Part shown: in pieces, positions 1 through 8,854 of the stretch
Layout: the number at the start of each line of letters is the position of its first letter
Position numbering within the stretch: the stretch's first letter is position 1
Source: an uncultured archaeon
Lineage (GTDB): Archaea; Thermoproteota; Nitrososphaeria; Nitrososphaerales; CALBXV01
Assembly: GCA_937890045.1 (NCBI GenBank)
Contig: CALBXV010000158.1
Span: forward strand, 1 to 8,854
DNA length: 8,854 nt
Reading direction: 5' to 3'
Notes under the pieces: model-generated
What the model was told of the DNA's origin: nothing
The model's database searches: none
What the model saw: only the letters and a program-made list of their open reading frames with translations
Made by a program: the position numbers and the translations under genes

Positions 1-74
1 AAGAACTACAAGAGGTTATCAAAGAATTGCAACAAGATATAAAATCACTTGAACGCAGAAAGAGGGATAAATAA
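1..74 (+). CDS. C-terminal end of an unidentified protein (5' truncated)
   Basis: An open frame enters from the left edge (first complete codon at base 3) and ends at TAA 72-74, giving a 23-residue tail, ELQEVIKELQQDIKSLERRK followed by RDK. The spacing of L, I and V among charged residues is that of an amphipathic helix, probably the end of a coiled coil, with a basic tip. Such tails are common and do not identify a function. The next gene starts 4 bases after this stop, so it probably belongs to the same transcript. The sequence is too short to place in a family. Confidence 0.6.
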   Translation, partial: ELQEVIKELQQDIKSLERRKRDK

Positions 75-78
75 TGTT

Positions 79-513
79 ATGAAATATAAAAAGTTAATAT
101 ACTGGGTATTTGGTATTTTGTTATATGTAGGTTGGAGTGAATTAGTTTGGGGTCAGGATAGCCTTAAACCTAAATCACCAATAGAATCATTAACCGATGA
201 CAATTTTAAAAAGAAAATAGCAAAGGGATTTGTACTTATTAAATTTACAGCACCATATCAAATGAAAAAACTAGATAATAAACTATTTGATGGTGTAAAG
301 GGATTTGAAGGTTGTGTTATTTTTGAGGTTGATCATTCACAAGTTAAAAAAGTTGTTAAAAAATTAAGAATACGAAATTATCCATCTATTGCTTTATTTC
401 ATGATGGTAAAAAGAAAGATGTATGGAAAGCTGATATGGACGGTGTTGTTGATGTAACTAATAAACATCTTAAAAAGGCAATATCTGATGCGATGTCGGG
501 AGATGTATTCTAA
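79..513 (+). CDS. Exported thioredoxin-fold protein lacking the CxxC active site
   Basis: A 144-residue protein. Residues 1-25 look like a signal peptide or membrane anchor: basic MKYKK, then a hydrophobic, Trp/Tyr-rich stretch, with a possible cleavage after VWG at 23-25. Residues 35-140 read as a thioredoxin fold: the strand FVLIKFTAP at 51-59, a second strand VIFEVD at 80-85, then RNYPSIALFHDGKK at 99-112 with the cis-Pro (P102) that follows helix 3 in thioredoxins. Where thioredoxin has WCGPC this protein has YQMKK (60-64), and its only cysteine is C79, so dithiol redox activity is not expected. By inference it is a binding or scaffold version of the fold acting in the host membrane or periplasm. 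I chose ATG 79 over an in-frame TTG at 49 because the signal peptide begins there and TTG 49 lies inside the upstream gene. AGAGGG at 61-66 is a rather distant ribosome site. The fold call is good, the role unknown. Confidence 0.72.
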   Translation: MKYKKLIYWVFGILLYVGWSELVWGQDSLKPKSPIESLTDDNFKKKIAKGFVLIKFTAPYQMKKLDNKLFDGVKGFEGCVIFEVDHSQVKKVVKKLRIRNYPSIALFHDGKKKDVWKADMDGVVDVTNKHLKKAISDAMSGDVF

Positions 514-1425: not shown

Positions 1426-2332
1426 ACTTATTAATTTATTAAATAGGGTTATCGGTAATAATGGTAGAATGCTTAGGAAGAGAGATGAGTATATGTACTG
1501 GTCTCCTTTTGTATCACATCATAAACCAAAATTACAAATAAACGTAAAAACACAAAAGTGGCATTGTTGGGTTTCTAATCAAGGTGGACATAATTTATTT
1601 CAATTATTTAAAAAAGTAAATGCTACAGATAAACAATTTACAGAACTTCGTAATATTGTTGGTGAAACTTCATATAAATATCGAAGTGATATTTCTAAAA
1701 AAGAAGAAAAAGTAGAATTACCAAAACAGTATAAACCTTTATGGGAAGACGATTCTGGAATTCAAAGAAAACATTCTTTAGTATATTTGTATAATAGAGG
1801 AATTACTAAAGATGATATTATTAGGTATAGTATTGGATTTTGTGATGAAGGGTTATATAATAATAGAGTTATTATACCATCTTATGATGCGGAAGGTGTA
1901 TTAAATTATTTTATTGCTAGAGATATCTATAAAAGTAAATTAAAGTATCGTAATCCACCAGTTTCAAAGGATATTATAGGATTTGAATTATTTGTAAATT
2001 GGGATGAACCGATTATATTATGTGAGGGTGCATTTGATGCTATAGCAATAAAAAGAAATGCTATACCTTTATATGGGAAAACTATTCTTCCTAAATTGAA
2101 TAAAAGAATTTATGAAAACAAAGTTAAGGATATCTATATTGCATTGGATAGAGATGCATTATCAGATTCATTAAAAATGATGGAAACATTTATGAATAAT
2201 GGAATAAATGTATATCTTTTAAAATTTAAAGACAAAGATCCATCTGAATTAGGATTTGAACCTTGTTTGAATTTAATTAGAGATGCAAGTAAGGCAGATT
2301 TTATGTCATTAATAAAATATAAGTTAAAATAG
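1418..2332 (+). CDS. Phage DNA primase with Toprim domain and degraded zinc ribbon
   Basis: A 304-residue primase of the T4 gp61/DnaG type, which makes RNA primers for lagging-strand synthesis together with a replicative helicase. The N-terminus (about 24-66) is the zinc-ribbon region: YMYWSPFVSHHKPKLQINV, then KWHCWVSNQGGHN. Families with this layout normally have CPFC or CPFH and CWVC; here those positions read SPFV and CWVS, so only C50 of four expected cysteines remains. The RNA-polymerase-like part has NNRVIIP at 148-154 and ARDI at 167-170. The Toprim domain has E203 (LCEGAFDA), D244-R-D246 (ALDRDA) and DPSE at 274-277, so metal-binding catalysis appears intact. The start overlaps the previous gene by 8 bases; AAGGAG (1396-1401) lies 16 bases upstream. 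No helicase gene is present in the window. Confidence 0.85.
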   Translation: MNKLINLLNRVIGNNGRMLRKRDEYMYWSPFVSHHKPKLQINVKTQKWHCWVSNQGGHNLFQLFKKVNATDKQFTELRNIVGETSYKYRSDISKKEEKVELPKQYKPLWEDDSGIQRKHSLVYLYNRGITKDDIIRYSIGFCDEGLYNNRVIIPSYDAEGVLNYFIARDIYKSKLKYRNPPVSKDIIGFELFVNWDEPIILCEGAFDAIAIKRNAIPLYGKTILPKLNKRIYENKVKDIYIALDRDALSDSLKMMETFMNNGINVYLLKFKDKDPSELGFEPCLNLIRDASKADFMSLIKYKLK

Positions 2333-5300
2333 TGATAGAAGAAAAAAATGTAAAAGTTCCATTTCGAAAGTTAAAATATATTCATCATATGTCGGATATT
2401 CAAATACGGAACTTAAAACGACATAAGGAATATGAAGAGGTTTTTGAAAGAACCTACGAAGAAGTAAGGAAATATCCAGATAATGCCGTAGCATATATTG
2501 GTGGTGATATAGCTCATTCTAAAACAGAAATGTCACCTGAATTAGTTGATCAGTTATCAAGGTTATTTAAAAATTTAGCAGATATAGTTCCAACTATTAT
2601 TATTACAGGTAATCACGATTGTAATCTAAACAATCGTTCTCGGTTGGACTGTCTTTCTCCAATAGTAGATAATTTAAAACATCCAAACTTACATTATTTA
2701 AAAGATACAGGTGTATATAAATGTGCTGATGTAAAATTTGTAGTATGGGACGTTTGGGATGATAAGAAAAAATACATAAAAGCTAAGGATGTTAAAGGTG
2801 ATACTAAAATAGTATTATTTCATGGAACGGTAGATAAATGTCAAACTGATTTAGGATTTAGATTACCTTCTGATGTAAAGATTACTCAATTTAAAGGTTA
2901 TGATATGGGGTTGTTAGGTGATATTCATAAACGACAACATCTTAATAAAGAAGAAACCATTTCTTATTGTGGTTCTTTAGTTCAACAAAATCACGGAGAG
3001 GGATTAGACCACGGCTATTTACTATGGGATGTTCCAAAACGAAAATCTACTTATATTCCTGTACATAATGAATTTGGATATTATACTTTAGATATTGATA
3101 ATGGTAAATTTAAAGATGTTATTGATATGCCACCAAAGGCTAGACTTAGATTAAGAGTTGCTAATACAAATGCAGTGCAATTGAAGAAGATTCTTGCATT
3201 AATACATTCAAAGTATGGTATAAAAGAAATTAATGTTATTAGAACTGATGGATTTTCAGGGGATAAGATTCGAGTAGAGGATAAAATAGATGTTGGAGAT
3301 ATTACTAATTCTGATTATCAGTACAATTTAATTGAAGATTACTTGAATAGGAATTATATAGTAGATGAAGAACTGTTAGTTAAAATAAAGGAAATTAATG
3401 ATGATTTAAATGTGGTTCTTCCAGATGAAGAGATTCAAAGAAATGTAAGTTGGAAATTAAAATCACTTGAATTTGATAATATGTTTTCATATGGGAAAGA
3501 TAATGTAGTAAATTTTACAAAATTAAATGGTATAGTTGGATTGTTTGCTCCGAATGCTAGTGGTAAATCTTCTTTATTAGATGCATTATCATTTTGTTTA
3601 TTTGATACTTCTTCTCGTGCATTTAAAGCTGCTAATATATTAAATAACAAGAAAGGTTCTTTTCATTGTAAGGCTAATTTTGAGATAGATGGATTAGATT
3701 ATTATATAGAGAGAACAGCTAAGAAAAACTTCAGAAGTGGTCATGTAAAGGTAGATGTAGAATTTTGGATGGTTGATGAAGGTGGTGATAAAATATTATT
3801 GAATGGAGATCAAAGAAGAACTACTAATGCAAATATAAGAAGAGTAGTAGGTACATATGAGGACTTTATATTAACAGCGTTATCTCTCCAAGTCAATTCT
3901 ACAGTTTTTATAGATAAAACTCAAAAAGAAAGAAAAGAACTTTTAGCTCAGTTTATGGGAATAGGTATATTTGATCAATTGTATATGTTAGCTCACGAAG
4001 ATATATCCGAAGTTTCTGCTATTTTGAAGGATTTTAAGAAAAGAGACTATGGTTTAGAATTAAGTGATATAAATAAAAATTTATTAATTCTAAATAAAGT
4101 TGAAAGTAAGTTATTAGTAGAAAAAGGAAATATTTCAGGAGAAGAATCTCAACTTAATGTAGATATTCTTGAATTAACAAAAAAATTAAAATCAGTGGAT
4201 GATTCAATATTGGATGTAGATAAGTTGAAGGGTGATAAGTTACATACAAAAGGTGAATTAAATGATATTGATGTAAGACTTGGAACATTGAAATCTAATA
4301 GAACCCAAAATGAATTCAGAGAAACAGAGTTAAAGGAAAAAATAAAAAATTATACAGATAGTAATCTTAATCAGAAGTATTTGAAACTTCAGCAGTTTAT
4401 TGAAGATAGAAAAGATACTAAAATTGAAATTGATAAATTAAAAATAGAAGTTAGACATAAACTTGATAAAATAGATAAGTTGGGAGATTTAAAATATGAT
4501 GAGGATTGTGAATTTTGTATGAGTAATCCTTTTACTTTAGATGCTATAAGTACCAGAGAAGGTTTGGATGATGATAAGAAATTAGCAGATAAATATGTTA
4601 AAAAGTATGATAGAATAGATAAAAAGGTTAGAGATTTAGAATACGCTAAAAATGATAAGGTAGATTTAGATAGATCTTTAAATGCATTACAAAACATAGA
4701 AATACAAAATAGTAAATTTGTATCAGAAGAAACAGTATTACGAGAACGTAAAAAAGCACTTATCAGTCAAATAACTATATTTGAAGAGAAAATATCAAAA
4801 TATTATATGCAAGAAAAAGATATATTATATAATAAAGAAATAGAAGAAGATATTGAAGATTTAAAAATTACTATAAATGATTTATCTGCATTAATTCAAA
4901 AGAATGAAGATGATTTAAATGACTCTCGTGGTAAAATTAAGGTGGCTGAAACTAATAAACAGAATATAGTAGATACTATTAATAAGGTAGAGGATTTAGA
5001 AATTAAGTATAAAGCATATGAGTATTATTTAGATGCAGTTAAGAGAGACGGAGTTCCATACGAACTTGTATCTAAAGCGTTACCTACAGTAGAAGGTGAA
5101 GTTAATAATATTCTTGCTCAAATAGTAGATTTTAATATAGTTCTTCAAATGGACGGTAAGAATATAAACACTTTTATTGCTTACGATGAGGATAATGTAT
5201 GGCCACTTGAACTATCAAGTGGTATGGAACGATTTATATCTTCTCTTGCAATTAGAGTAGGTTTAATAAATGTATGTAACTTACCACGAACTAACTTTTT

Positions 5301-5490
5301 GGCAATTGATGAGGGTTGGGGAACAATGGATTCAGATAACTTGAATTCAGTTTATAACTTATTTCAATACCTTAAAACACAATTTCAATTTACATTAATT
5401 GTATCTCATATTGAGTCTATGAGAGATGCAGTTGATTCCTTATTAGAAATTAAAAAAGAAGGAAATTATAGTAATATTAATTACGCGTAG
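2332..5490 (+). CDS. Fused Mre11/SbcD-like nuclease and Rad50/SbcC-like ATPase (T4 gp47-gp46 equivalents)
   Basis: One uninterrupted 1052-residue frame carrying both halves of the DNA double-strand-end processing complex, normally two genes (T4 47 and 46). The calcineurin-like nuclease is about 10-250: SDIQIRN (21-27), GGDIAHS (57-63), TGNHD (92-96), FHGTVD (163-168), GDIHKRQ (196-202). A capping or linker region follows to about 370. The SMC-type ATPase begins near 374: Walker A APNASGKSS (406-414), Q-loop area near LSLQVNS (517-523), coiled coil about 560-890 interrupted by a zinc hook CEFC (726-729), ABC signature LSSGMERF (961-968), Walker B with FLAIDEGWGTMD (989-1000) and H-loop VSHIES (1024-1029). 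The GTG start (TAGTG, coupled to the primase stop, no clear Shine-Dalgarno) is preferred over ATG at 2389 because the latter would delete the first beta strand KLKYIHH. In phages this complex resects ends for recombination-dependent replication. The nuclease motif I has Gln for the usual His. Confidence 0.9.
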   Translation: MIEEKNVKVPFRKLKYIHHMSDIQIRNLKRHKEYEEVFERTYEEVRKYPDNAVAYIGGDIAHSKTEMSPELVDQLSRLFKNLADIVPTIIITGNHDCNLNNRSRLDCLSPIVDNLKHPNLHYLKDTGVYKCADVKFVVWDVWDDKKKYIKAKDVKGDTKIVLFHGTVDKCQTDLGFRLPSDVKITQFKGYDMGLLGDIHKRQHLNKEETISYCGSLVQQNHGEGLDHGYLLWDVPKRKSTYIPVHNEFGYYTLDIDNGKFKDVIDMPPKARLRLRVANTNAVQLKKILALIHSKYGIKEINVIRTDGFSGDKIRVEDKIDVGDITNSDYQYNLIEDYLNRNYIVDEELLVKIKEINDDLNVVLPDEEIQRNVSWKLKSLEFDNMFSYGKDNVVNFTKLNGIVGLFAPNASGKSSLLDALSFCLFDTSSRAFKAANILNNKKGSFHCKANFEIDGLDYYIERTAKKNFRSGHVKVDVEFWMVDEGGDKILLNGDQRRTTNANIRRVVGTYEDFILTALSLQVNSTVFIDKTQKERKELLAQFMGIGIFDQLYMLAHEDISEVSAILKDFKKRDYGLELSDINKNLLILNKVESKLLVEKGNISGEESQLNVDILELTKKLKSVDDSILDVDKLKGDKLHTKGELNDIDVRLGTLKSNRTQNEFRETELKEKIKNYTDSNLNQKYLKLQQFIEDRKDTKIEIDKLKIEVRHKLDKIDKLGDLKYDEDCEFCMSNPFTLDAISTREGLDDDKKLADKYVKKYDRIDKKVRDLEYAKNDKVDLDRSLNALQNIEIQNSKFVSEETVLRERKKALISQITIFEEKISKYYMQEKDILYNKEIEEDIEDLKITINDLSALIQKNEDDLNDSRGKIKVAETNKQNIVDTINKVEDLEIKYKAYEYYLDAVKRDGVPYELVSKALPTVEGEVNNILAQIVDFNIVLQMDGKNINTFIAYDEDNVWPLELSSGMERFISSLAIRVGLINVCNLPRTNFLAIDEGWGTMDSDNLNSVYNLFQYLKTQFQFTLIVSHIESMRDAVDSLLEIKKEGNYSNINYA

Positions 5491-5754: not shown

Positions 5755-8700
5755 ATGCTTGAAAAAATCGTAAGACAAAGAGACCTCAATCTTGTAGACG
5801 TTTATATTGAAGATTCTGATGCTACTTCGAAGTATTTTGAAGTATTAGAGTCTCCTCAAATTTTACCTCCAGGTAGAAGTTCAATTTTAATAAATGGTTC
5901 ACCATTTCTAAAAAAGGGAACAGAAGTTTTAGCTGAACTCCTTGATAGTGAAGGTAAGCCAATTTATATTAATGCAATAGCAAATCTACTTGAGGGTACA
6001 GCTAGAAGAATTGGAGTTGAAATATATCAGACTACTGCTCAAGGTAGGGCTGTTTTAACTATTCTTGGTGAGATAGACCCTGCCGCAGTAGATTTTGTTA
6101 TTCCAGAAGAATTCCAAGGAGTCTATAATGTAAGATTTCAGAAGACTTTATCAGTAAATCCTAATGTTAATAATACAGAACCAATTCGATTTTTACGCAG
6201 ACCTCAAATAGCAGTTGAAGAAGTTGTACTGAGTCAAATTACACCAGAAGAAGGTGTGTTTGGTGTAGATATTGTTAAATCAGGTTCTATGTATGGAAAA
6301 CGAGTACCTTATGGTGAACAACAAGTTGTTAATCCTGCAAATATAGAAAGAGTTTCTGCAGTATTATCGCCAGTTGTTGAAGCAGGATTTGGAACTGAGG
6401 GTACGATTAATAATAGAAAATTTCCTGTTAAATTATCATCGGGACAGTCTGATGGTATGATTGTAAGAAGGTTATATAGTTGGGGTGATGGTACAACAAC
6501 TACTGGTAATGCTTATAATATCGATCCAGTCGATGGACTCGCTCCGTATAACCAAACACATGAATATACAAAAGCTGGTACTTATATTGCAAGAGTTATA
6601 GTTACAAGTCCTACAGGACAACATGATGAAGCAACACAACTTGTTAATATTAGTAAACCTCAAGCTCCAGTAGCTGATTATTCACTAAGTCAAATTACAG
6701 GTAGTATAAATACTTCTATAACATTTAGTGATTTAACTCAAGGTGTAGCTGGTAATATAGACAGTTCTACATATTCAAATGGAAGTAGTTCAGCTGTAGA
6801 TACTGAATATAGTTGGAGTTTTGGTGATGGAACTCAAACTTCTCAAATAGGTCAAAATAATACTGGAGTATCACTTCCAATTACGCATTTATATAATCAA
6901 ACTGGTTCTTATTTAACGAGATTACAAGTTCATAATGATTATAGAAGACAAAATAGTTTTACTACAAAACCAATATTAATTTTACCACCAGATCCAGGTG
7001 CTAAGTTTGATATTGATGTTAGTCAAGGTGAATTTCCATTAACAATAACTGTTAGTTCAACTACTGAAAGTGGATCAGCACCAACACATACATTAGGTAC
7101 ACCAACTCCAAATGTACCAGCTGATATACAAGCAGTTAGTATGAGTTATGAATGGGATTTCGGTGATGGAAATACTGCAGGTGGAGATACTGCATCACAT
7201 ACATTCGGAATATCAGGAGGTTCACCAAGTTCAGATACTACCTATAATGTTAGTTTAAAGGCTACAGATCAATATGGAAGAGAAAGTACTGAAACTAAAG
7301 CAGTAGAAGTTACACTTGCAGCACCAAGAGCAGATTTTACTCAGAGTTTTGCATATGATACAACTTTTCCTGTAACTGCAACTTTTGCTGTTCAGGCAAC
7401 TGGATCTAATGCTACAGGTAGAGATTGGTCAGCTGGAACATTTTTAGATTCAACTTCTTATTATTGGACTTTTCCTGGTGGAAGTCCAGCTAGAAGTACT
7501 TCGGCTAATCCTACAGTAACTTATACAAGTCCAAATTCTAATAATATAGGATGGCCAGTTACTTTAAAAATTGTTAGTACTGGTACAGCTGCAAATGGAA
7601 ATAGAAAAACAGAAACATTTACTAAACCAAGTCTTGTACAAGTTGATTTACCATCAGTTCCTGTACCTAGTTTTGAAACATCTAAAACACAAGGATTTGT
7701 ACCATTAACAGTTAATTTTGCTAATACATCTCAAAAAGCAGCAGCACAAAATTTAACTTATTCATGGGATTTTGGTGATGACTCTGGAAGTGTATCTACA
7801 CATCCAACACATATATATACTGCAACGTCAGGGAATCATTCAGTTGTATTAACAGCAACTGATCAATTTGGAACGAGTAACTCTTCCGATCCACTATTAA
7901 TAAATACTCTATCAATAAATCCAAGTTCTAATTGGGATTTACAGGGGGCTTCGACTAACTTATCTCAAGGGGAAACAAGAAGATTTTATGATACGACTAC
8001 TACTCCAGCTGGGTCTGTTATAGTTAGTAGACAATGGTCATTTGCACAAGGAGAAATAAGTCAAACAAGTGCTGTACAAAATCCTTTAATAACATTTGCT
8101 AATGCTGGAAATGTTAACGTTTCTTTAACTACAGTTAATAGTCTTGGTGGTACACACACCAAAACAGTACAAAATTATTTGTCAGTTGGATATGATCCAC
8201 CTTCTGCGAGTGCTAATTTAACAGCTACGTCTGGAACTACTTCTGTTACAACTTTTTATATAACTGATACTTCTACAACAAACCATCCATTAGGAATTTC
8301 GGCAGTAACAGTAGATTGGGGTGATGGAATTATTTATACTACATTTGGCTCTGGTGCAATGCAGGGTCATGTGTATACGACTGCAGGAACTTATACTCCA
8401 ACTGTATCTGCTCATGATAACGCTGGATCTGCAACAACTTCTCTTGCAACAATAACAATTTCTAATCCAGCAGGTCCAACTGCTGTTATAGAATCAGTAA
8501 CAAGTACAACTTCTACTGTACCACATTATCAACAAGTCCAAGATAATTCTACAGGTACAGTTACGAGTAGAATATGGGATTGGGGGGATGGTTCTCCTAC
8601 TTCATCTTCACCAACTGCTGGACACGTATATAAAAATGCAGGAACATATACACTTGAGTTAGAAGTAACTGGACCTGGAGGTCAGACTAGCTTAGCAACT

Positions 8701-8854
8701 TTATCAGTTGTAGTTGAACCAGCGGTTGTTGACGGAGAATCAGATACTACTACGGAAGAAGAAGGTACAGAGAATACTGATACTTCAGGTGGTAGCTCCG
8801 GCGGTGGAGGCGGCTGTGTTCTTGAAGGAACTCTTATACTAACAGATAGAGGAT
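5755..8854 (+). CDS. Giant phage structural protein: N-terminal virion domain, eight PKD domains, start of a Hint domain (3' truncated)
   Basis: ATG 5755 opens a frame with no stop through the window edge (1033 codons). Residues 1-200 form a phage-structural-type domain: MLEKIVRQRDLNLVDVYIED, then PPGRSSILINGSPFLKKG (39-56), LEGTARRIGVEIY, and VPYGEQQVVNP near 190. From memory, similar N-termini occur in virion proteins of marine T4-like phages. Residues about 206-988 hold roughly eight PKD/Ig-like beta-sandwich domains, with WGDG (243), WSFGDG (354), WDFGDG (467), WTFPGG (571), WDFGDD (671), WSFAQG (761), WGDG (855), WDWGDG (941), most followed by an HxY...AGxY strand. Then come a Thr/Glu-rich linker (989-1010), a Gly/Ser linker (1012-1020), and C1021 followed by VLEGTLILTDRG, like the first block of a Hint/intein domain. 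There is no signal peptide, as expected for a virion protein. Likely a surface-exposed tail, neck or fibre component binding host or glycan surfaces; the exact virion location is unknown. Confidence 0.85.
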   Translation, partial: MLEKIVRQRDLNLVDVYIEDSDATSKYFEVLESPQILPPGRSSILINGSPFLKKGTEVLAELLDSEGKPIYINAIANLLEGTARRIGVEIYQTTAQGRAVLTILGEIDPAAVDFVIPEEFQGVYNVRFQKTLSVNPNVNNTEPIRFLRRPQIAVEEVVLSQITPEEGVFGVDIVKSGSMYGKRVPYGEQQVVNPANIERVSAVLSPVVEAGFGTEGTINNRKFPVKLSSGQSDGMIVRRLYSWGDGTTTTGNAYNIDPVDGLAPYNQTHEYTKAGTYIARVIVTSPTGQHDEATQLVNISKPQAPVADYSLSQITGSINTSITFSDLTQGVAGNIDSSTYSNGSSSAVDTEYSWSFGDGTQTSQIGQNNTGVSLPITHLYNQTGSYLTRLQVHNDYRRQNSFTTKPILILPPDPGAKFDIDVSQGEFPLTITVSSTTESGSAPTHTLGTPTPNVPADIQAVSMSYEWDFGDGNTAGGDTASHTFGISGGSPSSDTTYNVSLKATDQYGRESTETKAVEVTLAAPRADFTQSFAYDTTFPVTATFAVQATGSNATGRDWSAGTFLDSTSYYWTFPGGSPARSTSANPTVTYTSPNSNNIGWPVTLKIVSTGTAANGNRKTETFTKPSLVQVDLPSVPVPSFETSKTQGFVPLTVNFANTSQKAAAQNLTYSWDFGDDSGSVSTHPTHIYTATSGNHSVVLTATDQFGTSNSSDPLLINTLSINPSSNWDLQGASTNLSQGETRRFYDTTTTPAGSVIVSRQWSFAQGEISQTSAVQNPLITFANAGNVNVSLTTVNSLGGTHTKTVQNYLSVGYDPPSASANLTATSGTTSVTTFYITDTSTTNHPLGISAVTVDWGDGIIYTTFGSGAMQGHVYTTAGTYTPTVSAHDNAGSATTSLATITISNPAGPTAVIESVTSTTSTVPHYQQVQDNSTGTVTSRIWDWGDGSPTSSSPTAGHVYKNAGTYTLELEVTGPGGQTSLATLSVVVEPAVVDGESDTTTEEEGTENTDTSGGSSGGGGGCVLEGTLILTDRG
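6370..8718 (+). repeat. Array of about eight PKD-type domain repeats (protein-level)
   Basis: Approximate domain limits in residues are 206-301, 302-410, 411-521, 522-630, 631-722, 723-812, 813-902 and 903-988. Each begins near a Pro-rich linker (KPQAPVADY, PPDPGAKFD, AAPRADF, SVPVPSFE, DPPSASA, NPAGPTAV) and contains the W-x-F/W-G-D-G turn. Domains 1, 7 and 8 share an AGTY strand (KAGTYIARV, TAGTYTPTV, NAGTYTLEL). Domains 4 and 6 have lost the GDG turn (FPGG, FAQG). The repeats are divergent at DNA level, so they are old duplications rather than recent tandem copies. Confidence 0.8.
8719..8814 (+). other. Acidic then Gly/Ser linker with a sharp GC rise
   Basis: Residues 989-1020 of the PKD protein. 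The first part is Thr/Glu/Asp-rich (DGESDTTTEEEGTENTDTSG), the second is GGSSGGGGG. Bases 8788-8817 are 22 of 30 G or C, far above the surrounding AT-rich coding sequence and using GGC and TCC codons rare elsewhere in the window. It is a flexible hinge separating the PKD array from the following Cys-led module. Confidence 0.75.
8815..8854 (+). other. N-terminal start of a probable Hint (Hedgehog/intein) domain, cut by the window
   Basis: Cys 1021 is followed by VLEGTLILTDRG. Hint domains begin with a catalytic Cys (or Ser) and a block of the form C-x-x-x-G/D-T-x-I/V-x-x-x-x-G, which this matches at C, G, T, I and G. The abrupt Gly-rich linker directly before the Cys is also a common arrangement for Hint modules in phage and bacterial surface proteins. 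Only 13 residues are visible, so whether it is a splicing intein, a self-cleaving bacterial-intein-like domain or an unrelated Cys-led segment cannot be decided. Confidence 0.55.

What the first reader, a model, noticed from the sequence alone, without database searches (positions are those of the whole stretch)
8785..8854. PKD fibre protein runs into a probable self-processing Hint domain at the window edge
After eight PKD domains and a Gly/Ser linker the protein reaches CVLEGTLILTDRG, matching the opening block of Hint/intein domains (catalytic Cys, GT, hydrophobic strand, G). If correct, the virion protein could cut itself, splice, or transfer its N-terminal part onto a nucleophile, a maturation or host-attachment mechanism not standard for T4-like fibres. 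The match is seen; the family pattern is established knowledge; the function is inference.
Basis: partly seen in the sequence, partly recalled or inferred. Interest (0 to 1): 0.75.

Follow-up and report, generated by a model that had tools for sequence, protein, structure and literature searches.

The report
Self-processing domain inside phage fibre
A giant phage tail-fibre protein runs, after a row of adhesion-type domains, into an intein-like domain that probably cuts itself out of the chain, so the fibre may be trimmed or re-joined after it is made.

Summary
Cys1021 (8815-8817) is the only cysteine of the 1033-residue open frame. The last 14 residues are 9-10/14 identical to the start of a complete Hint domain at the same place in four relatives. 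Five relatives (P0003, P0007, P0008, L009, L007) show the rest: about 138 residues, SDTH/SDSH in block B and a terminal His-Asn. In three of them a long shaft is read beyond the Hint. L009 has the window's gene order; L007 ends in a Peptidase_S74 chaperone domain. The predicted structure of the L009 Hint matches bacterial intein-like (BIL) domains and mini-inteins. The residue after HN is R, R, A, A or K, never C/S/T, so canonical splicing is not expected. Best fit: a type-A-BIL-like self-processing domain that breaks Gly|Cys and Asn|X and may re-join the flanks through an amine. L011 and L023 keep PKD array and Gly linker without the Hint. Activity is untested, and the window shows only 13 residues of its own Hint. 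Hints on tail proteins already stand in deposited records (phage NCTB; Erwinia, Dickeya, Yersinia phages); seven paper searches found none described. New variant of a known kind.

The parts
5755..6222 (+). N-terminal domain (about residues 1-156) shared by the fibre family, with or without PKD and Hint; probably the part that anchors the fibre (inference)
   Evidence: Alignment A3 of 8 sequences, invariant columns up to E156; relatives P0001-P0006 and L001, L003
6358..8724 (+). Array of eight PKD-type repeats (about residues 202-990; outer limits approximate)
   Evidence: Pfam PKD_4, 7 stretches, E 1.3e-52; eight W-type motifs 88-113 residues apart
8788..8814 (+). Gly/Ser linker GGSSGGGGG, ending at Gly1020, the predicted acyl donor
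   Evidence: Sequence; linker also in Hint-bearing relatives and in Hint-less L011 and L023
8815..8853 (+). First 13 residues of the Hint domain (block A): Cys1021 predicted nucleophile, CVLEGTLILTDRG; the domain runs off the window
   Evidence: 9-10/14 identity with four complete Hints at the same place
2332..5490 (+). Context: single-frame Mre11/Rad50-like (gp47/gp46, SbcD/SbcC) fusion that precedes the fibre gene here and in relatives
   Evidence: Pfam Metallophos plus SMC_N/AAA_23, PHROG 77; same neighbour in L001, L003, L009, L010, L011, L023, L043, L044

Best explanation
The open frame is the N-terminal third or so of a giant tail-fibre-like protein: N-terminal domain, eight PKD repeats, Gly linker, a Hint domain of about 138 residues, then a long shaft and, at least in one relative, a C-terminal S74 chaperone. 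The Hint is a BIL type-A-like self-processing domain. Predicted steps: Cys1 takes over the bond to Gly1020 as a thioester; the terminal Asn cyclises and frees the C-terminal flank; then either water ends the reaction and the PKD half is cut from the shaft, or an amine of the C-flank (the new alpha-amine, or the Lys at +3 that all five read relatives carry) attacks the thioester and joins PKD half and shaft, with the Hint excised. I think re-joining somewhat more likely than plain cleavage, because Hint-less orthologues make the same fibre as one chain and plain cleavage would part the N-terminal domain from the shaft. Shown: architecture, motif residues, predicted fold, Hint-less relatives. 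Inferred: that it is in the virion, that it is active, and which outcome prevails.
For: Same architecture with complete Hint in P0003, P0007, P0008, L009 and (from inside the Hint) L007. Cys1 in 4 of 4 with a readable start; S-D-[TS]-H and terminal HN in 5 of 5; +1 residue R, R, A, A, K, so no C/S/T in 5 of 5. Pfam PT-HINT and Intein_splicing hits, weak but over the right stretch; NCBIfam intein_Cterm above cut-off in P0008. Profile search of solved structures: best hit 2LWY, the Clostridium thermocellum BIL domain, E 2.5e-8 (single sequence 3.8e-7). AlphaFold2 model of the L009 Hint, pLDDT 75.5, pTM 0.71; Foldseek top hits the BIL2 domain 6Y75/6TMM, Ssp DnaB mini-intein, 2LWY, E 1e-10 to 1e-9. 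Hint site lies in the Gly linker; L011 and L023 have PKD and linker without Hint. S74 chaperone at the end of L007 (E 1e-14). BILs lacking the +1 nucleophile cleave and can ligate through an amine (passages of PMC4031507; PMC7664689).
Against: Only 13 residues lie in the window; its own Hint may be incomplete or mutated. Pfam Hint hits of the fibre proteins are below the curated cut-offs in hmmscan, though L009 is above it for PT-HINT in the genome search. Block B has S-x-x-H, not T-x-x-H. The other four AlphaFold models were worse (pLDDT 54.5-66.9) on an alignment of only 5 sequences. One review says type A BILs cannot ligate their flanks (PMC7765530 passages), against the other review. Hint divergence is not strongly constrained (pN/pS 0.56 between L009 and L007, flanks 0.40-0.63). 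No activity test.
Confidence: 0.65

Rival explanations
1. Worn-out intein: the Hint keeps its fold but no longer reacts, and sits in the fibre as an inert domain or spacer in a tolerant Gly linker.
For: No +1 nucleophile in 5 of 5; S-x-x-H in block B; located in a flexible linker where an inert insert would be tolerated; dispensable in L011 and L023; pN/pS in the Hint no lower than in the flanks.
Against: Cys1, block B His, penultimate His and terminal Asn are kept in relatives whose flanks are only 41-58% identical for the divergent pairs; a dead domain would be expected to lose some of them.
Confidence: 0.2
2. Ordinary mobile mini-intein that splices by the class 1 route and leaves no trace.
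For: Hint-less alleles exist (L011, L023); closer between L009 and L007 than its flanks at synonymous sites too (pS 0.27 against 0.43-0.57), as recent sharing would give; true inteins occur in phage LR756508 of the same wider group (HN followed by S, T, C).
Against: +1 is R, R, A, A, K, never C/S/T; about 138 residues leave no room for a homing endonuclease; inserted in a Gly linker, not in a conserved enzyme site.
Confidence: 0.1
3. Hedgehog-like transfer: the Hint passes the PKD half as an acyl group to an outside nucleophile (another virion protein, a lipid or a host-surface amine).
For: Thioester chemistry only needs the N-terminal half; BIL2 of Tetrahymena passes a ubiquitin-like domain to a Lys side chain (PMC8616854 passages) and is the top structural match; Hints of the same phages can end the protein with nothing behind them (L024 ends ...HN stop, L007 232-aa protein ...HQ stop).
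Against: In the fibre family the terminal HN and a long C-flank are kept, which a hog-type domain would not need; no acceptor is known; nothing tested.
Confidence: 0.1
4. The window's own protein stops or diverges shortly after the edge, so this phage has only a block-A-like end.
For: The window ends there; no source held the continuation (exact search of viral contigs 0 matches; the 96% identical P0001 ends before the linker).
Against: Position, linker and 9-10/14 identity agree with relatives in which the frame goes on.
Confidence: 0.06

Closest known systems
Type A bacterial intein-like (BIL) domains, e.g. Clostridium thermocellum BIL (PDB 2LWY)
   Same: Hint fold, Cys1, block B His, terminal His-Asn, no C/S/T at +1; best sequence match among solved structures
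   Different: Here inside a phage fibre with a long shaft behind it, inserted in a Gly linker after PKD repeats; block B is S-x-x-H
BIL2 of the Tetrahymena BUBL1 locus (PDB 6Y75, 6TMM)
   Same: Top structural match; works without a +1 nucleophile and forms an isopeptide with a Lys (PMC8616854 passages); fibre Hints have a Lys at +3
   Different: 19-20% identity in the Foldseek alignment; flanks are ubiquitin-like domains; Lys use is only an analogy here
Mini-inteins (Ssp DnaB M86, NpuDnaB, gp41-1)
   Same: Fold and motif order; Hint-less alleles exist
   Different: No +1 C/S/T; not in a conserved enzyme site
Hint-bearing tail proteins of phage NCTB and of Erwinia, Dickeya and Yersinia jumbo phages (NCTB genes 136, 135, 132; Alexandra gp112, Y3 gp110 and others)
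   Same: Hint on proteins annotated as tail, tail fibre or virion structural, after collagen-like, Ig-like or Calx-beta parts; in NCTB 136 and 132 behind GGGGC
   Different: There the Hint ends the protein with a tail of 3-10 residues; here it is internal; little sequence similarity; +1 is T in the five Erwinia/Dickeya proteins read
Peptidase_S74 chaperone of tail fibres
   Same: Autoproteolytic processing of fibres is known; S74 domain found in L007 and L043
   Different: S74 acts at the C-terminus as a folding aid; the Hint lies between PKD array and shaft

Membership tests
Type A BIL domain | Hint fold | tested here: met
   In relative L009: AlphaFold2 and Foldseek; not testable on the window's 13 residues
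Type A BIL domain | N-terminal Cys/Ser nucleophile | tested here: met
   Cys1021 in the window; 4 of 4 relatives with a readable Hint start
Type A BIL domain | Block B T-x-x-H | tested here: inconclusive
   S-D-T-H or S-D-S-H in 5 of 5 relatives: His kept, Thr replaced by Ser
Type A BIL domain | C-terminal His-Asn | tested here: met
   HN in 5 of 5 relatives; beyond the window edge in the window
Type A BIL domain | No C/S/T at +1 | tested here: met
   R, R, A, A, K in 5 of 5
Type A BIL domain | Auto-cleavage or nucleophile-free splicing | not testable with these tools
   Needs protein chemistry
Class 1 intein | C/S/T at +1 | tested here: not met
   0 of 5
Class 1 intein | Insert at a conserved functional site of the host protein | tested here: not met
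   Lies in a variable Gly-rich linker
Class 1 intein | Intein-less alleles exist | tested here: met
   L011 and L023; flanks differ in length, so the join is not exact
Hedgehog Hog domain | No C-terminal HN; sterol-recognition region instead | tested here: not met
   HN in 5 of 5, followed by shaft sequence in L007, P0007, P0008, L009
Tail fibre with S74 chaperone | S74 domain at the C-terminus | tested here: met
   L007 (E 1e-14) and Hint-less L043 (6.1e-15); window protein truncated; not found by Pfam in L044, L001 and L023; the L009 and L023 frames end early or off the contig

The most novel reading that the evidence does not exclude
The Hint does not just excise itself: it welds the PKD half to the shaft through a side chain, the invariant Lys at +3, giving a branched, isopeptide-linked fibre, or passes the PKD adhesin to an amine elsewhere on the virion or the host surface. 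In the Hints read, a Lys lies within 10 residues after HN in 17 of 17 tail-locus Hints that have a tail, against 3 of 8 in replication and packaging proteins; within 7 residues 15 of 17 against 1 of 8. The 17 are about 8 independent groups, hand-picked after the fact; two further Hints end at HN or HQ without any tail.
Probability: 0.12. Interest if true: 0.88.

Novelty: new variant of a known kind. Interest (0 to 1): 0.6.

Why it matters
If active, this is a phage fibre whose covalent make-up is decided by an embedded intein-like domain after translation: PKD repeats and shaft could be separated, re-joined or linked at a side chain. It would add a processing route for fibres beside the S74 chaperone, give a natural use for BIL domains, whose role is still unclear, and put a question that protein chemistry can settle quickly. 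The same domain type on tail proteins of cultured jumbo phages suggests that it is not a local accident.

Tried and rejected
Tried without use: whole-genome lookup (no genome held); exact search for the window's end in viral contigs; P0003 as query in viral contigs (no relative confirmed); PHROGs on the window fibre (0 families); search with window residues 720-1033: 115 proteins, of which I opened none; none lists a Hint Pfam accession, the named ones are cellular PKD proteins, so it gave no continuation of the window.

Considered and rejected: chance motif; class 1 intein (+1 residue); Hog domain (HN kept). The idea that the Hint is more conserved than its flanks because of selection: Hint identity is above both flanks in all 6 N-flank pairs (once only 83 against 81) and all 6 C-flank pairs, but synonymous divergence is lower too (one pair), so recent sharing explains it as well. 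Conserved Lys as acceptor: kept only as the novel case. Rows dropped before the Lys count: L031 (HN then AECKVSP) and L034 (LCVQKTV), Hints on proteins of unknown kind, both with Lys; L020, a chance pattern match; L030, no match to my pattern; L019 and L022, near duplicates; three LR756508 Hints without a readable end; and 33 of the 39 Erwinia, Dickeya and Yersinia records, not opened. The enzyme set of 8 is L006, L018, L021, L032, L033 and three LR756508 Hints (two, one alone).

Full report
What is in the window. ORF 5755-8853 is open at the window's end and gives 1033 residues. It has a conserved N-terminal domain, PKD repeats (7 stretches by Pfam PKD_4; eight by motif), a Gly/Ser linker (8788-8814) and GCVLEGTLILTDRG. 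Cys1021 is its only cysteine. Upstream lie a primase-like gene, a PDDEXK/RusA-like gene and a single-frame Mre11/Rad50-like fusion.

Is the match more than chance? The last 14 residues are 9-10/14 identical to the Hint starts of four relatives; 300 shuffles reached at most 8/14, the other five frames 5/14. A Hint HMM alone cannot tell 13 residues from noise. The case therefore rests on relatives.

Relatives. A search with residues 1-300 found six proteins; P0003 (1243 aa) carries, after PKD array and Gly linker, a complete Hint. A search with that Hint found P0007 and P0008 (80 and 63% identity), whose frames go on for several hundred residues into a fibre shaft. In viral contigs, L009 has the window's gene order (primase-like gene, one extra gene, the fusion gene, the fibre gene) and a fibre of at least 2704 aa with the Hint at residues 1068-1205. 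L007 begins inside the Hint and runs 2200 further residues to a Peptidase_S74 domain. The window's linker and Hint start fall in the same alignment columns.

Catalytic residues. Cys1 in 4 of 4 readable starts; S-D-[TS]-H and terminal HN in 5 of 5; +1 is R, R, A, A, K; Lys at +3 and Pro at +11 are the only invariant positions in the first 11 or so residues behind HN.

Fold. The A2 profile finds 2LWY (BIL domain) first among solved structures, E 2.5e-8, then inteins; L009's Hint alone gives the same. The AlphaFold2 model of L009's Hint (pLDDT 75.5; the four other models 54.5-66.9) matches BIL2 of Tetrahymena, DnaB mini-inteins and 2LWY, with Hedgehog autoprocessing domains further down. In the viral library many hits are terminase inteins or proteins named Hint, and two are named Fibronectin type III.

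Relatives without the Hint. L011 and L023 have PKD repeats (Pfam for L023), the Gly linker and shaft but no Hint. L001, L003 (L002 looks like the same phage), L043 and L044 share N-terminal domain and neighbours; a Hint profile finds nothing in them and Pfam finds no PKD in the three tested, L001, L043, L044. L010 is cut before the linker. So of 11 fibre genes where the Hint site or what stands for it could be read, 5 have the Hint and 6 do not; Hint-bearing ones come from a search with Hints, so this is no frequency.

Evolution. Hint identity is higher than N-flank identity in 6 of 6 pairs and than C-flank identity in 6 of 6, e.g. L009/P0008: 44, 64, 47%. Between L009 and L007 synonymous differences are also fewer in the Hint (pS 0.27 against 0.43-0.57) and pN/pS is not lower (0.56 against 0.40-0.63). 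Recent sharing, as with a mobile intein, fits as well as selection.

Other Hints on tail proteins. L007's phage has two more Hint proteins next to the fibre (232 aa, ending HQ; 399 aa), L009's contig a 445-aa protein with two in tandem, the second ending at HN, and LR756508 a 432-aa protein ending HNKH. The NCTB record has three at its tail-fibre locus, annotated by its depositors as intein domain proteins. Searching with one of these found 41 records: NCTB itself, 36 Erwinia, 2 Dickeya, 1 Yersinia and 1 Mycolicibacterium phage, the last in a terminase. In the six I opened the protein is annotated virion structural or tail fibre, and its Hint is followed by a 10-residue tail; Y3's note says it contains an intein domain.

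Mechanism. Without C/S/T at +1 the transesterification of class 1 inteins is not available. Reviews say that such BILs mostly cleave, and that type A BILs can splice by attack of the freed amino group on the thioester (PMC4031507 passages; PMC7664689 passages); another says they cannot ligate (PMC7765530 passages). BIL2 joins to a Lys side chain (PMC8616854 passages). For a fibre, re-joining would keep N-terminal domain and shaft together as in Hint-less orthologues; plain cleavage would part them unless they hold together otherwise. This is inference.

Literature. Seven of ten paper searches aimed at Hint, intein-like or BIL domains on phage virion or tail proteins. I saw listings and passages, no whole paper. 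Passages put phage inteins in terminases, reductases and similar enzymes; none described a Hint on a tail fibre. The library holds only open-licence PMC papers, and the supplements were not searched.

Noticed in passing
window 2332-5490: Mre11-like nuclease and Rad50-like ATPase (gp47/gp46, SbcD/SbcC) are fused in one 1052-aa frame; the same fusion precedes the fibre gene in relatives. Of 92 phage records matched, only 2 cover at least 80% of it (Microcystis phage Mel-JY01, LR756508).
   Followed up: partly
L024 7916-9250: A 445-aa protein with two Hint domains in tandem; the first is followed by KESLGG, the second ends exactly at HN before the stop.
   Followed up: partly
L007 7245-7943 and 9023-10222: Two further Hint proteins next to the fibre gene; one ends in HQ at the stop, the other has HN then K and a 26-residue tail.
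   Followed up: partly
L026 5761-9921 (LR756508): One 1387-aa frame with three Hint matches, two with HN followed by S or T, the third without a readable end: likely nested true inteins in one protein.
   Followed up: no
L035 3972-5414, L036 3984-5417, L037 4002-5435, L038 3903-5339, L039 3975-5414, L040 3903-5345: Erwinia, Dickeya and Yersinia phage virion structural or tail fibre proteins end in a Hint and a 10-residue tail, TDIVAKAEKK-like.
   Followed up: partly
L023: A fibre gene of this phage family lies on a contig binned as a Chloroflexi MAG; host link or mis-binning not tested.
   Followed up: no
window 49-513 and 665-1048: A thioredoxin-like protein with a hydrophobic N-terminal stretch and a small zincin-like protein lie upstream.
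   Followed up: no
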